Of a stretch of 64,000 nt of DNA, positions 16,210 to 58,564 are shown in pieces (within the stretch, counting starts at the first letter, position 1; every line of letters starts with the position of its first letter). Made by a program: the position numbers and the translations under genes. Below the pieces are notes generated by a model. It was not told the DNA's origin. It did not search any database and was given only the letters and a program-made list of their open reading frames with translations. The DNA is from Fuerstiella marisgermanici (lineage in GTDB: Bacteria > Planctomycetota > Planctomycetia > Planctomycetales > Planctomycetaceae). The DNA lies in the NCBI RefSeq assembly GCF_001983935.1, contig NZ_CP017641.1, positions 5,208,001 to 5,272,000 on the forward strand, given 5' to 3'.

Positions 16210-17382
16210 ATGTCGACAGTTGAACTGGCGGTCACCCAGGAGCTGACAGGAAACATTGTTCATTACTTTGATCAATTGAAAGACCCGCGTTCCAACATCA
16301 ATCGTCTGCATCTGCTTGGTGATGTGATTGTGATCGCCATTTGCGGAGTGCTGGCCAACGCCGACGGCCCCAGTGCGATTGCGGAATGGGCGCGACTGAA
16401 TGCCGATGGCCTGCAGAAACACCTGGCACTTCCGCATGGCATTCCGAAAAAAGATACGTACCGGCGCGTCCTTTCTCTCCTGAAGCCGAACGACTTTCAA
16501 GCGTGCTTCGTGCAATGGATTGAATCGCTGGAAGGACTTTCCGACGAACAGAAAGAAGGCTACAGAAAACAGATTGCGATTGATGGCAAAGCACTCCGTC
16601 GATCACATGACAAAAAGAATGGGCTGGGTGCGTTGTTCATCGTGAGTGCGTGGGCTTCTGATCAGGGGATTTCTCTGGGACAGGTGGCGACGGAAGAGAA
16701 GTCGAACGAGATCACCGCGATCCCGAAATTACTGAACGAAATCAATATCGATGAGGCGATCATTACGATTGACGCAGCGGGTTGTCAAAAAAACATTGCG
16801 CAGCAGATCGTGTCTGGCAATGCAGACTATGTGTTAGCCCTGAAAGGCAACCAACCGAAACTCTATGAGGTCGTGCAGAAGTTTTTTCTCGATCACCTGG
16901 AGGATGACTTCGCTCGCTGTCCCGTCAGTCGCTATGAAGAAACAGAGAAGGGACACGGTCGGCAGGAACAGAGAATCTACTATCAGGCGACCGTGCCTGT
17001 CGATTTTGACGTGGGCCACAAATGGGCCGGACTCAAGACCATCGGAACGGCGATCCGAATGTACGAGCAGGACGGCATTCATCATTCTGACGTTCGCTAC
17101 TACATCAGCAGTCTGCGTCGCAAAGGCGAGCTGTTCGCAACAACGGTTCGTGGTCACTGGGCCATAGAAAACACGCTGCACTGGAGTCTCGACATGACCT
17201 ACCGCGAGGATGAGAGTCGAGTCCGAAACCGAATCTTCGCGAACAATTTGTCATGGCTCAGACGAATCACACTCAGCCTCATCAAGAAACATCCTGGCAA
17301 ACAAAGCAACGTCATGAAAAGAAGAATGGCCGGATGGAACATTGACTATTTGATGCAAATCCTTACCGGCAAAACAACTTAG
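16210..17382 (+). CDS. ISAs1-family DDE transposase
   Basis: A 390-residue transposase. The N-terminal helical region has FDQLKDPRSNINRLH and GDVIVIAICGVLANADG, the usual ISAs1 opening; QIAIDGKALRRSHDK carries the first catalytic Asp, IITIDAAGCQKNIAQQIV the second, and the RGHWAIENTLHWSLDMTYREDES segment the Glu region with the family's IENxLHW-type motif. Length matches complete members and there is no frameshift, so the enzyme is probably active. The ATG at 16210 is preceded by GAGGAGAGGAC, a strong ribosome-binding site. The stop codon lies inside the right inverted repeat, a common economy in small IS elements. Confidence 0.96.
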   Translation: MSTVELAVTQELTGNIVHYFDQLKDPRSNINRLHLLGDVIVIAICGVLANADGPSAIAEWARLNADGLQKHLALPHGIPKKDTYRRVLSLLKPNDFQACFVQWIESLEGLSDEQKEGYRKQIAIDGKALRRSHDKKNGLGALFIVSAWASDQGISLGQVATEEKSNEITAIPKLLNEINIDEAIITIDAAGCQKNIAQQIVSGNADYVLALKGNQPKLYEVVQKFFLDHLEDDFARCPVSRYEETEKGHGRQEQRIYYQATVPVDFDVGHKWAGLKTIGTAIRMYEQDGIHHSDVRYYISSLRRKGELFATTVRGHWAIENTLHWSLDMTYREDESRVRNRIFANNLSWLRRITLSLIKKHPGKQSNVMKRRMAGWNIDYLMQILTGKTT

Positions 17383-52206: not shown

Positions 52207-55200
52207 ATGAGTTCCGAATTAGAGTTCGTCGTTGAACCCGTTGAGGATCACCAGTGGGAATCCGTGCTGGAACGTGCGAATGCAGAATTCTGGTCGGCCT
52301 TTGTGGTGACAAACAACTCAGACGCGGCCGAACTGTTGGCGAGCCATCTGTCGGCTAATCGCGTGCTTGTGGGGGACATGCCTGGCAAATTCATCAGCCA
52401 GCTCCCGCGGGAACTCGTTGCGCTTGCCTTGCACGGGCAGTCGTTGCACTCGCTGCCCGCTGACTTCGGGGACCTCCAACAACTCGAACGCCTCGACCTC
52501 ATTGGCATTCAGCTAAGCGCGCTGCCCCCTGACTTCGGCAACCTCCAAAAACTCAAACATCTCGACCTCGACGGCAATCAGCTAAGCTCGCTGCCCGCTG
52601 GCTTCGGCAAGCTCCAACAACTCGAAGATCTCGACCTCGGCGGCAATGACCTAAGCTCGCTGCCCCCTGACTTCGGCAACCTCCAACAACTCCAAGCTCT
52701 CCTCCTCAACGGCAATCAGCTAAGCTCGCTCCCCCCTGGCTTCGGCGACCTCCAAAAACTCCAAACTCTGTTCCTCAACGGCAATCAGCTAAGCTCGCTC
52801 CCCCCTGACTTCGGCAAGCTCCAAAAACTCGAAGATCTCGACCTCGACGGCAATCAGCTAAGCTCGCTGCCCGCTGGCTTCGGCAACCTCCAAAAACTCA
52901 AACATCTCGACCTCGACGGCAATCAGCTAAGCTCGCTCCCCCCTGACTTCGGCAACCTCCAAGAACTCCAAAATCTCAACCTCAACGGCAATCAGCTAAG
53001 CGCGCTGCCCACTGACTTCGGCAACCTCCAAAAACTCGAACTTCTCGGCCTCAAAGGCAATCAGCTAAGCGCGCTGCCCACTGACTTCGGCAACCTCCAA
53101 CAACTCCAAACTCTCTACCTCGACGGCAATCGGCTAAGCGCGCTCCCCCCTGACTTCGGCAACCTCCAAAAACTCGAACTTCTCGGCCTCAAAGGCAATC
53201 AGCTACCTGATTCGTGGACGGAGGCGTACGAACAGGGACTTAAACCGTTCTTCGCCTTTTTGGGCAGTCTGAGCCCCGACGGCACAGCCAATCGACTGTT
53301 CGAGACCAAGCTGATGATGGTCGGCGAAGGGCGTGTGGGCAAATCGTGCCTTGTTGAAGCGCTGGACAAAGGCAAGGCTTCGCACAAGCAGACAACACAC
53401 GGTATTCAGGTCACAAGATTGTCCGTGCCCCATCCAGGTGCGGGGCAGGACGATATTCCGCCAGAGCAGGACATTACTGTGAACTTCTGGGATTTCGGCG
53501 GGCAGGATGTCTATCGCGTCACGCATCAGTTTTTCTTCAGCGATCGATCTCTGTATATCGTTGTGTGGAACCCACTGCTGGGAGTGGAGTATGCCAACGT
53601 GGCGTACTGGATCGAACTGATTCAACGACGTGTAGGGAACGATGTCCGTGTACTGGTTGTGGCCTCACATTCCGAAGCGGGACGCGTGCCGCGAATTGAC
53701 GAACTGGGGCTGCAGAAAAAGTTCCCGGACGTGATTGCCGGATTCTTCGAAGTTGACAGTATCTGTGGGGCCGGCATCGATGATCTACGAGCCGCCATCA
53801 GCCGGGAAGCCGCCGATCTTTCGCACATGGGCGATCCGTTTCCGCCATCGTGGAGCAAGGTTCGGGATGATCTGTACTCGTCCGCTAACAAAGACACACC
53901 TTTCATCAACTGGTCGCAATTTCAGGAGCGGTGTCGCCATCACGAAGTTCCGCTGAACGCAGACAAACCGCTGGCCGTTTTATTGGACCGGCTGGGGCAT
54001 ATCATTTACTTCGCCGATGACGCCGGATTGAAAGATCTGGTTGTCTTGAACGCGGAGTATCTTTCTAAGGCTATCGGACTCGTCCTGGAACACCCCGGCA
54101 CGAACGAACGAAGCGGCATTCTGCATCACGAAGATTTGCCGCACATCTGGAATGATCCTGCCCGCGTTGAACGGGACCGCTACGAAGATGAGAGGCTTTA
54201 TCCGTACTTTCTGCGGCTGATGGAAAAGTTTGATGTCACTTATCGCATCAATGACGACACGGGCCAGTACAGCCTGGTCGGGCAGCTTGTGCCCGTGGAC
54301 CGGCCTGCTGTTGGCGAAGGGCCGGACGATCACCCGGATTCGGCCCGTAGTTTGCCGTGGGACCACGACGACGATGAACGCGCGAGCTGCAAACGCGTTC
54401 AACTGGTCATCCGGTTGGACGACGATCCGCCAGGGCTGATGCCGTGGTTAATCGTTCGCCATCATCGTTATAACGAACGTCGAATTCACTGGCAAAAAGG
54501 CATCTTCCTGCATTCGTCCGACTACGGAGATGCACTGCTGGAAATGCAGGATCGCGATGTCGTCATCACGGTTCAGGCTCAGTACCCGCCGACTTTGCGG
54601 TCAATTGTGCGAGCCTCCGTGGAGGAACTCCTCAAGAGTTGGGATGGATTGAAAGGCCGTTGGACAGTTCGTGTGCCCTGCCAGACGGTTCTAGAAGGCG
54701 GCAACCGATGTCCGGGAACGCTGCCGTTGACTCGGCTGCAGGAACGAATGGCCCGAGGAGAATTCGCGTATCCCTGCGAAAAGTGTGACTGTGATCAGAA
54801 TATCTCACAGCTTATCAACGGCTTCCCCAGCCCGGACCCTGGAGTTCGCGTCGCGGTGGCGTCTCAAAAACTGGACGAAATGCAGGAACAGATTACAGCG
54901 GGTTTCTCAGCGGCAAAGATTGATCGGCATGCCATCGCTAAGGAAACGCTGCATGAATTGAGGTCCGTTGTTGCCGAATCAACACGGTTGGTGTTGAAGG
55001 CATTCGAGAACAAGCAAGTTCCCTGCCCGCGACTGTTCACACTGTTGCCTGCGGAGCTTGAACGCCGGGAGAAGGTTAACCCGATAAAATTGTTCAAGAG
55101 CGGTACGTCGGATCGGTATCGGCTGACACTTTGGTGCGAAATGCCGGGTGAAGAGCACGCCTGCTCTCCCGTTGGGGCCGCAGGTGCAAAGTCCGATCCG

Positions 55201-55668
55201 TCCAAAGGCGAGTATCTGTTTGATGTCCCGTTAAAATGGGTAGCAGGTGTCGCTGGGTATGTGTCACTGATTGGCAAGACGATTGGCGTGGTTGCACCAA
55301 TCGCTAAAAATGTCTCTAACCTGGCTGCAGGGTCCGATGAGGATCTAAAGCGGCTGCTTAAACAGATTGACGTCATGAAGTCGTTGGCAGATATGTGCAA
55401 GAACGTAACAGTGGACAGCCTGAGGTTGGTGCGGGGAAACGGGTCAAACGACTTTCGGGAGATCGTTGAGAGCGAACAACACCGCCAATTCTACCATTTG
55501 CTGCAGGACTTAGATCCGACAGAAATTTATGGCGGCCTCAATTGGACGCTGAACAAGGCGACGGGCGATTGGCTCTGGCTGTGTTCCCGTCACCAAAAGG
55601 TATTCAACCCTGACCTGCCCGTGATCCCCAAACGCAAGCTTAAGCGGATTAGAACTCGCAAGGAGTAA
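52207..55668 (+). CDS. Roco-type LRR-Roc-COR GTPase with zinc ribbon and hydrophobic C-terminus
   Basis: An 1153-residue protein. Residues 83-335 are 11 leucine-rich repeats of 23 residues each (LPxxFGxLQxLxxLxLxGNxLS). Roc GTPase: Walker A GEGRVGKS near 370, TTHGIQV, and WDFGGQD near 428; the G4 position reads ASHSEAG instead of NKxD. A COR-like region spans roughly 540-760. A Cys4 zinc-ribbon-like unit (CQTVLEGGNRCPG and CEKCDCD, about 825-862) follows, then helices and a hydrophobic stretch at about 1013-1040 (VAGVAGYVSLIGKTIGVVAPIA) and a basic tail (KRKLKRIRTRKE). Roco proteins are multidomain GTPases; function of bacterial ones is largely unknown. Confidence 0.93.
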   Translation: MSSELEFVVEPVEDHQWESVLERANAEFWSAFVVTNNSDAAELLASHLSANRVLVGDMPGKFISQLPRELVALALHGQSLHSLPADFGDLQQLERLDLIGIQLSALPPDFGNLQKLKHLDLDGNQLSSLPAGFGKLQQLEDLDLGGNDLSSLPPDFGNLQQLQALLLNGNQLSSLPPGFGDLQKLQTLFLNGNQLSSLPPDFGKLQKLEDLDLDGNQLSSLPAGFGNLQKLKHLDLDGNQLSSLPPDFGNLQELQNLNLNGNQLSALPTDFGNLQKLELLGLKGNQLSALPTDFGNLQQLQTLYLDGNRLSALPPDFGNLQKLELLGLKGNQLPDSWTEAYEQGLKPFFAFLGSLSPDGTANRLFETKLMMVGEGRVGKSCLVEALDKGKASHKQTTHGIQVTRLSVPHPGAGQDDIPPEQDITVNFWDFGGQDVYRVTHQFFFSDRSLYIVVWNPLLGVEYANVAYWIELIQRRVGNDVRVLVVASHSEAGRVPRIDELGLQKKFPDVIAGFFEVDSICGAGIDDLRAAISREAADLSHMGDPFPPSWSKVRDDLYSSANKDTPFINWSQFQERCRHHEVPLNADKPLAVLLDRLGHIIYFADDAGLKDLVVLNAEYLSKAIGLVLEHPGTNERSGILHHEDLPHIWNDPARVERDRYEDERLYPYFLRLMEKFDVTYRINDDTGQYSLVGQLVPVDRPAVGEGPDDHPDSARSLPWDHDDDERASCKRVQLVIRLDDDPPGLMPWLIVRHHRYNERRIHWQKGIFLHSSDYGDALLEMQDRDVVITVQAQYPPTLRSIVRASVEELLKSWDGLKGRWTVRVPCQTVLEGGNRCPGTLPLTRLQERMARGEFAYPCEKCDCDQNISQLINGFPSPDPGVRVAVASQKLDEMQEQITAGFSAAKIDRHAIAKETLHELRSVVAESTRLVLKAFENKQVPCPRLFTLLPAELERREKVNPIKLFKSGTSDRYRLTLWCEMPGEEHACSPVGAAGAKSDPSKGEYLFDVPLKWVAGVAGYVSLIGKTIGVVAPIAKNVSNLAAGSDEDLKRLLKQIDVMKSLADMCKNVTVDSLRLVRGNGSNDFREIVESEQHRQFYHLLQDLDPTEIYGGLNWTLNKATGDWLWLCSRHQKVFNPDLPVIPKRKLKRIRTRKE
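52453..53211 (+). repeat. Eleven tandem 69-bp units encoding the LRRs
   Basis: Consecutive 69-bp units, each beginning with a ctgccc/ctcccc codon pair for Leu-Pro, keep nearly the same DNA (for example ttcggcaacctccaaaaact and ggcaatcagctaagc), not only the same protein. Units 2 and 7 share the KLKHLDLDGNQLSS wording and units 9 and 11 share KLELLGLKGNQL, as expected from recent block duplication. Confidence 0.95.
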
Positions 55669-57159: not shown

Positions 57160-57402
57160 GGCGAAGAACGCGATAAGGGGGCATTGTGCTTTTCCAAATA
57201 AGTACAACGTCCCCTTTCGCTCTGCTCCCCCTTTCGCTCTGCTCCGCTGGTATCTGGAACGTCGATCTGTCGGCTTGCCGATTCGCTGGCCGCCGGGATT
57301 GGAACATGATGACCAGTTCGCAACCGATCTGTAGTCGACCCCCACAATGATCCATCTTGTGCCTGCAGCACCCAACCGCCATGAACGGCGGTCGGGCCAC
57401 CC

Positions 57403-57805
57403 TGCGAACACAGAGCACCAGAACACAGATCGCTTCCCACGCACGATCAGCCCTTGCCCGATCGTTTAACCCGCAGCCGAAGGCGCAGGCGCTGCTCACG
57501 CGGTCCCGTGCGTGGCAAGGCTTCTTGAGAACGTCAGAGTTAGCAGTATCGTTGTCGTGACCGGAATCCACCAAACAACCGTCAGAGCGTCGCCTGCGCC
57601 TTCGGCTGCGGGTTAAACTCGAAACCGTTCACACACTGGCAAAGCCAGTGGCACCCGCCGACGCATTCGCAGTGGTGCGGTCACGCTCGAATTGAAACGC
57701 AGAGGTCGCGGAGTCGCAGAGGGGCGCAGAGTTGGCCAGGGGCAGCATTTCTCTCTGCGGTACTCTGCGGCTCTGCGCACTCTGCGTTAAACCGTTCTTA
57801 GCCGC
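57403..57805. repeat. 403-bp direct repeat, copy A
   Basis: Near-identical to 57996-58399. Internal 28-bp perfect inverted repeats lie at 57464-57491 and 57591-57618 (arms start GTTTAACCCGCAGCC and end GGCTGCGGGTTAAAC), 99 nt apart. Further hairpins are CACTGGC/GCCAGTG and a long imperfect pair made of the CGCAGAG words near the right end. Confidence 0.93.
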
Positions 57806-57929
57806 GTTCCGTCGACGTTCCCGCCACGCTGCCTAATCGCTTCAGCTTGCTATCGAAGACGAATGGCCCAAACGACACGAGCGTCGGATCGTCGCTTCGC
57901 CTGATCTGGCCTACTCAATCGCCGAAGTT

Positions 57930-57998
57930 TACACCTCTCCCCAGCGAAGCTGAGGGGGAGGTCGGACAAGCGAAGCAACGTCCGGGAGGGGGCCGTGC
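57930..57998. repeat. 69-bp dispersed intergenic element, copy 2
   Basis: Same length and word order as 38474-38542. It abuts, and overlaps by a few bases, the left edge of repeat copy B. Confidence 0.8.
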
Positions 57999-58399
57999 GA
58001 ACGCAGAGCACCAGTAACACAGCTCGCTTCCCACGCACGATCAGCCCTTGCCCGATCGTTTAACCCGCAGCCGAAGGCGCAGGCGCTGCTCACGCGGTCC
58101 CGTGTGTGGCAAGGCTTCTTGAGAACGTCAGAGGTTGCAGTATCGTTGTCGTGACCGGAATCCAACAAACAACCGTCAGTGCGCCGCCTGCGCCTTCGGC
58201 TGCGGGTTAAACTCGAAACCGTTCACACACTGGCAAAGCCAGTGGCACCCGCCGACGCATTCGCAGTGGTGCGGTCACGCTCGAATTGAAACGCAGAGGT
58301 CGCGGAGTCGCAGAGGGGCGCAGAGTTGGCCAGGGGCAGCATTTCTCTCTGCGGTACTCTGCGGCTCTGCGCACTCTGCGTTAAACCGTTCTTAGCCGC
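57996..58399. repeat. 403-bp direct repeat, copy B
   Basis: Matches copy A over its whole length with only about ten differences by eye. Same internal inverted repeats and CGCAGAG-rich end. Confidence 0.93.
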
Positions 58400-58564
58400 T
58401 GGGTGGCCCGACCGACTTGTTCGGTCGGATAGCGTAGCGACAGGATGCCTGTTTGTGAGCTTTCCATCGAACATGGAGTCCCATTCAGATTGGACGCCGG
58501 ATGATGAGACATCTTGTGCCTGCGGCACCCAGCCGACCGGCCGCGCCACCCCGCGTATGATCGA

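What the first reader, a model, noticed from the sequence alone, without database searches (positions are those of the whole stretch)
52207..55668. Large Roco GTPase with zinc ribbon and a hydrophobic, possibly membrane-active C-terminal part
LRR-Roc-COR is followed by a Cys4 unit and a region with a GxxxG-like hydrophobic helix (VAGVAGYVSLIGKTIGVVAPIA) and a basic tail. The gene stands alone next to a repeat island. The layout (variable LRR sensor, GTPase switch, C-terminal effector-like part) resembles NLR or STAND-type immune sensors, and a defence or cell-death role is possible. The missing NKxD motif (ASHSEAG instead) suggests unusual nucleotide selectivity.
Basis: inference. Interest (0 to 1): 0.6.

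Follow-up and report, generated by a model that had tools for sequence, protein, structure and literature searches.

The report
Diversifying Roco GTPase with unknown tail
This planctomycete gene encodes an LRRK2-like molecular switch whose sensor repeats look tuned for recognising changing targets and whose tail is an undescribed domain, so it is probably a stand-alone immune-type receptor of a kind already predicted but, as far as I found, never tested in bacteria.

Summary
The ORF is real: 1153 aa at 52207-55668, with 11 leucine-rich repeats, Roc GTPase, COR-A, COR-B and a C-terminal part of about 280 aa. The Cys4 unit lies inside Pfam COR-B and recurs in other Rocos. The missing NKxD is the [S/T]H form also seen in LRRK1 (THLD), so it is no sign of odd nucleotide selectivity. 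The hydrophobic helix is borderline and not a conserved membrane span. The tail is a domain without Pfam, NCBIfam, PADLOC or PDB match. I found it in five other planctomycete Rocos forming one lineage with the window protein (support 91/97), plus one truncated remnant and one LRR-only gene. It has a conserved C-x6-H ... C-x2-H set that may bind metal. The strongest new evidence is the sensor: the 69-bp repeats differ almost only by amino-acid changes (pN/pS 3.25), and the three most variable columns are exactly the concave binding-face positions. Absence from seven congeners shows it is accessory. The window has no defence neighbours. A conflict role for bacterial LRR-Roc-COR proteins with variable tails was predicted in 2021 (PMC8195603). 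Verdict: immune-type role plausible (about 0.55), membrane-active reading unsupported; a new variant of a known kind.

The parts
52207..55668 (+). Roco protein gene, 1153 aa (LRR-Roc-COR-Cys4-coiled coil-unknown module)
   Evidence: ORF; Pfam; intact single copy in the genome
52444..53202 (+). 11 tandem 23-aa LRR units (69 bp each); columns 16, 18 and 20 (concave xLxLx) hypervariable with almost no synonymous change
   Evidence: TRF; codon analysis
53308..53670 (+). Roc GTPase domain (residues 368-488); P-loop GEGRVGKS 53323-53346, G3 DFGGQ 53491-53505
   Evidence: Pfam PF08477 E 4e-21; motif positions
53665..53676 (+). G4 position SHSE, aligned with THLD of LRRK1; [S/T]H in all module-carrying relatives
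53842..54291 (+). COR-A (residues 546-695)
   Evidence: PF16095 E 1.2e-27
54397..54822 (+). COR-B (residues 731-872)
   Evidence: PF25497 E 8.8e-21
54679..54786 (+). Cys4 knuckle C825-x9-C835-x21-C857-x2-C860, inside COR-B
   Evidence: all four Cys kept in L023, L029, L030, L043, L044
54823..55011 (+). predicted helical / coiled-coil linker (residues 873-935)
   Evidence: inference from AF2 secondary structure of low confidence and alignment
55012..55629 (+). undescribed C-terminal module (residues 936-1141), with C977-x6-H984 and C1126-x2-H1129
   Evidence: relatives; alignment; no family match
55240..55305 (+). hydrophobic helix VAGVAGYVSLIGKTIGVVAPIA (residues 1012-1033); probably a packed helix, not a membrane span
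   Evidence: hydropathy in eight relatives
55624..55665 (+). basic tail (IPKRKLKRIRTRKE), not conserved in the relatives

Best explanation
An NLR-like (by analogy) single-gene receptor built on a Roco switch. The LRR solenoid binds a ligand through its variable concave face. Binding changes the nucleotide and dimer state of Roc-COR, as in characterised bacterial Rocos. This exposes or rearranges the C-terminal module, which acts as effector or effector-recruiting adaptor against an invader or competitor. Shown: the architecture, the diversified LRR face, the single-lineage tail module, and the patchy distribution. Inferred: ligand, nucleotide-driven switching in this protein, effector action, and the defence role.
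For: Architecture. Repeats: pN/pS 3.25 over units 2-11; concave columns pN 0.51 against pS 0.009. The three concave columns are the single most variable triple of 1771, and third-position changes are below a neutral simulation, P = 0.003. The same focus of amino-acid change on xLxLx appears in most other planctomycete Roco arrays tested. Distribution: 4 of 170 family genomes and 0 of 7 congeners; no conserved synteny. Sister Rocos have TIR, cyclase, phosphatase or DUF4365 tails. Prior prediction of LRR-AP-GTPase-COR conflict proteins with at least 24 variable tails: PMC8195603. The same combination of internally conserved repeats and selected binding-face positions is described for fungal NLRs: PMC4986451.
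Against: The window neighbourhood holds pectate lyase, ceramidase and DUF3604 genes, with no PADLOC hit. No known effector domain or PADLOC match in the protein itself. The module stays with one Roco lineage and is not seen swapped freely. Exposed LRR positions vary in many non-immune LRR proteins. Repeat comparison within one gene is a weak selection test, because recombination can inflate pN/pS. No bacterial Roco was found to have experimental defence evidence.
Confidence: 0.55

Rival explanations
1. A non-defence Roco switch for development, cell-cell or surface signalling in a complex-lifestyle planctomycete: LRRs bind an endogenous or host partner and the tail is a protein-docking domain.
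For: No defence neighbours; no recognisable toxin domain; tail with possible metal site and no evident catalytic residues; Rocos outside defence are well known (PMC6337361).
Against: Patchy presence, 0 of 7 congeners; concave-face diversification; toxin-like tails in sister Rocos.
Confidence: 0.3
2. A membrane-active executioner: on activation the tail inserts its hydrophobic helix and permeabilises the membrane.
For: The window helix reaches Kyte-Doolittle 1.63 over 19 residues; basic tail.
Against: Relatives score 0.54-1.67; mid-helix charges recur; GxxxG is not conserved outside the closest relatives; the conserved features of the helix are W...APY/P positions typical of a packed domain.
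Confidence: 0.1
3. Decaying or neutral accessory gene with no selected role now; repeat variation only reflects recent slippage and recombination.
For: Patchy distribution; a 5'-truncated remnant in L024.
Against: Intact 1153-aa frame; motifs conserved at 56% identity in L023; amino-acid changes exceed the neutral expectation.
Confidence: 0.05

Closest known systems
Chlorobium tepidum Roco (CtRoco, PDB 6HLU / 8R4B)
   Same: LRR-Roc-COR order; matches across LRR, Roc and COR
   Different: Tail module 936-1141 has no PDB match; G4 is SHSE rather than NKID
Prokaryotic AP-GTPase (Roco) conflict proteins predicted by Kaur et al. 2021 (PMC8195603)
   Same: Fast-evolving LRRs + AP-GTPase + COR + variable C-terminal domain
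   Different: The tail matches none of the effectors named in the text read (GT4, TIR, DRHyd, caspase, trypsin, FGS); whether it is among their 24 could not be checked
Human LRRK1/LRRK2
   Same: Roc-COR core; TH-type G4 motif in LRRK1
   Different: No kinase; Cys4 and unknown tail instead
Fungal NLRs with internally conserved repeats (PMC4986451)
   Same: Near-identical repeats with variation at binding-face codons; switch plus sensor layout
   Different: Those are NACHT/NB-ARC with WD, ANK or TPR repeats; this one is a Ras-like GTPase with LRRs

Membership tests
Roco family | Roc and COR domains in tandem | tested here: met
   Roc, COR-A, COR-B all above Pfam cut-offs
Roco family | Intact P-loop and DxGGQ switch II | tested here: met
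   GEGRVGKS at 373, DFGGQD at 429
Roco family | Guanine-specificity motif G4 (NKxD or the THxD form) | tested here: inconclusive
   SHSE aligns with THLD of LRRK1; the final D is E here but D in L023 SHCD
Roco family | GTP binding and dimerisation through COR-B | not testable with these tools
   needs biochemistry
AP-GTPase conflict proteins (Kaur 2021) | N-terminal fast-evolving LRRs fused to AP-GTPase-COR | tested here: met
AP-GTPase conflict proteins (Kaur 2021) | Recognisable effector domain at the C-terminus | tested here: not met
   no Pfam, NCBIfam, PADLOC or PDB hit for the tail
NLR / STAND NTPases | NACHT or NB-ARC (AAA+-derived) NTPase | tested here: not met
   only Ras-like Roc matched; so NLR-like by analogy only
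Known anti-phage defence systems | PADLOC model match or defence-island context | tested here: not met
   no PADLOC match to the protein or to the six window neighbours tested
Pore-forming / membrane effectors | Conserved transmembrane or amphipathic insertion helix | tested here: inconclusive
   borderline hydropathy, not conserved; both AF2 models too poor, mean pLDDT 39.8 and 38.7
Diversity-generating retroelement target | Template repeat elsewhere in the genome, adenine-only changes | tested here: not met
   no second copy of the array; adenines of the CAA (column 12) and, in units 2-11, AAT (column 22) codons do not vary

The most novel reading that the evidence does not exclude
A bacterial Roco receptor whose LRR array is continually re-diversified by repeat turnover plus selection, coupled to a new C-terminal effector or adaptor domain with a C/H metal site: a GTPase-based counterpart of variable fungal and plant NLRs.
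Probability: 0.3. Interest if true: 0.7.

Novelty: new variant of a known kind. Interest (0 to 1): 0.42.

Why it matters
My literature search found no bacterial Roco with a defence experiment, although the class has been predicted to act in conflict. This gene gives a compact single-protein test case: a sensor with a mapped variable face, a switch core with solved relatives including LRRK2, and an undescribed tail domain found in related species. If active, it would show that LRRK2-type GTPases serve as immune switches in bacteria and would add a new effector or adaptor domain.

Tried and rejected
Structure: two AF2 jobs were too poor to use (mean pLDDT 39.8 and 38.7), so no fold search was run. 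The first job's alignment (A1) included row L027, which came from the genome search, a source not named in the tool's list; the tool accepted it. I kept the second job to the listed sources.

Distant homology: profile searches of the tail against the PDB gave nothing below E 0.08. Plasmids gave no match. Eukaryotic genomes could not be searched.

DGR idea: rejected, because there is no template copy and adenines elsewhere in the unit do not vary.

Defence island: rejected for the window. L024 and L035 have TIR-TPR genes nearby, but two cases prove nothing.

Freely swapped module: rejected in favour of one Roco lineage.

XopAE, XopAC and internalin hits in NCBIfam are LRR cross-matches far under their cut-offs. 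L033 and L034 did not hold up.

Full report
OBSERVATION. The ORF 52207-55668 is open and intact, 1153 aa. Pfam places LRRs over residues about 80-335, Roc at 368-488, COR-A at 546-695 and COR-B at 731-872, all above curated cut-offs. The protein matches C. tepidum Roco structures across LRR, Roc and COR. The Cys4, helix and ASHSEAG are present as described, as is the basic tail. The genome is a complete 8.92 Mb contig. This is its only gene over the Pfam COR-B cut-off. A second Roc-like gene (WD40-Roc-COR-like-DUF4365) lies 3.2 Mb away.

CYS4 AND G4. The Cys4 unit lies inside Pfam COR-B. All four cysteines are kept in five related Rocos, and other planctomycete Rocos have similar C..C pairs at the same place. 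The G4 position SHSE aligns with THLD in LRRK1. All module-carrying relatives have [S/T]H there, while other Rocos have NK, NE or AR forms. So the missing NKxD marks a subfamily rather than an oddity of this gene; guanine selectivity was not tested.

THE TAIL MODULE. Residues 880-1153 match nothing in NCBIfam, Pfam or the PDB, and the whole protein matches nothing in PADLOC. Relatives came from the genome collections. L023 is Roc-COR-module at 56% identity. L024 is a 140-aa 5'-truncated remnant at 53%. L027 has LRRs followed by the module with no Roc-COR between them, across a frame break. L029, L030, L043 and L044 come from a second family of the class. The alignment shows P-R-L-F, WCE(H)P..HP, P..W...APY, G.L and WLCP.H motifs. 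C977 and H984 are always six residues apart when both are present; C1126 and H1129 are two apart. L044 alone lacks H984, C1126 and H1129 together, which fits one shared metal site (inference). No catalytic set is evident.

LINEAGE. A Roc-COR tree puts the six module carriers on one side of one branch (91/97; 86% of bootstrap trees), with the other tails outside. The module therefore mostly travels with one Roco line. Other Rocos in the phylum end in TIR (L006, L007, L013, L017, L019), guanylate cyclase (L018), metallophosphatase (L014), helix-turn-helix (L010) or DUF4365 (own genome).

HYDROPHOBIC HELIX. The best 19-residue hydropathy is 1.63 in the window and 0.54-1.67 in relatives, with one or two charges kept inside. 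The conserved W and APY/P positions look like a packed helix. Membrane action is not excluded, but nothing supports it.

THE SENSOR. Eleven 69-bp units average 85% identity. Units 2-11 have pN 0.150 against pS 0.046. The concave columns 16, 18 and 20 have pN 0.51 and pS 0.009. Their codons read NNT, NNC and mostly NNC, with the third base nearly fixed. Those three columns are the most variable triple of all 1771 possible. The share of differences at third positions, 0.19, is below a simple neutral simulation (mean 0.34, P = 0.003). A cruder count of distinct states gives 25 to 2, P = 0.03. Most other Roco arrays in the phylum also focus amino-acid change on xLxLx (all but L012, and only marginally L046), but their synonymous divergence is usually higher. 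This is the same pattern as internally conserved, binding-face-selected repeats of fungal NLRs (PMC4986451). Caveats: the units are paralogous, recombination violates the test, and the simulation had no mutation bias.

CONTEXT AND DISTRIBUTION. The tail occurs in 4 of 170 family genomes and in none of seven congeners. It was found in 1 of 392 genomes in a less sensitive phylum sample, namely this genome itself. The upstream ceramidase gene is kept in all congeners but without the window's other genes beside it, so no conserved synteny was found. Six window neighbours have no PADLOC hit. Elsewhere, the L024 remnant follows an alpha/beta-hydrolase gene and a TIR-TPR-SEC-C gene, and L035 has a TIR-TPR gene about 5 kb away. 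That is suggestive but too few cases.

MECHANISM. Established Roco biology gives nucleotide-linked monomer-dimer cycling (PMC6337361). I infer ligand binding on the variable LRR face, a change in Roc-COR state, and activation of the tail as effector or docking module. A conflict role rests on three legs: the 2021 prediction for this architecture (PMC8195603), the diversified sensor, and patchy presence with toxin-like tails in sisters. I give it 0.55; a non-defence signalling role gets 0.3.

NOVELTY. Bacterial LRR-Roc-COR conflict proteins are a predicted known kind. What is new here is the undescribed tail module with its lineage and possible metal site, and the quantified repeat diversification. 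A search for Roco with anti-phage found no relevant experiment.

Noticed in passing
L024:5170-8414: The truncated module gene directly follows an alpha/beta-hydrolase gene and a TIR-TPR-SEC-C gene; possibly a conflict-gene turnover site.
   Followed up: partly
L009, L012 and L021: Rocos with 24-aa LRR arrays (EGAQAIAQLQNLTSL or EGARALASLTNLTSL type); those of L009 and L021 are very uniform, with few synonymous differences. Long stretches at the end of L012 and L021 look transmembrane.
   Followed up: partly
L027:942-1950: LRRs followed directly by the tail module without Roc-COR, across a frame break; fused gene, sequencing error or decay cannot be told apart.
   Followed up: partly
L038:3252-7655: The genome's other Roc-like protein: WD40 repeats, Roc, COR-like part with a Cys knuckle, and a DUF4365 tail.
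   Followed up: partly
window 57211-58535: Repeat island with two at least 300-nt copies 98% identical (594 bp apart) and several inverted arms of 36-41 nt; no clear gene.
   Followed up: no
L018 and L014: WD40-Roc proteins ending in a guanylate cyclase and in a calcineurin-like phosphoesterase.
   Followed up: no
window 16210-17382: Intact-looking transposase gene of the ISAs1 type (by eye only).
   Followed up: no
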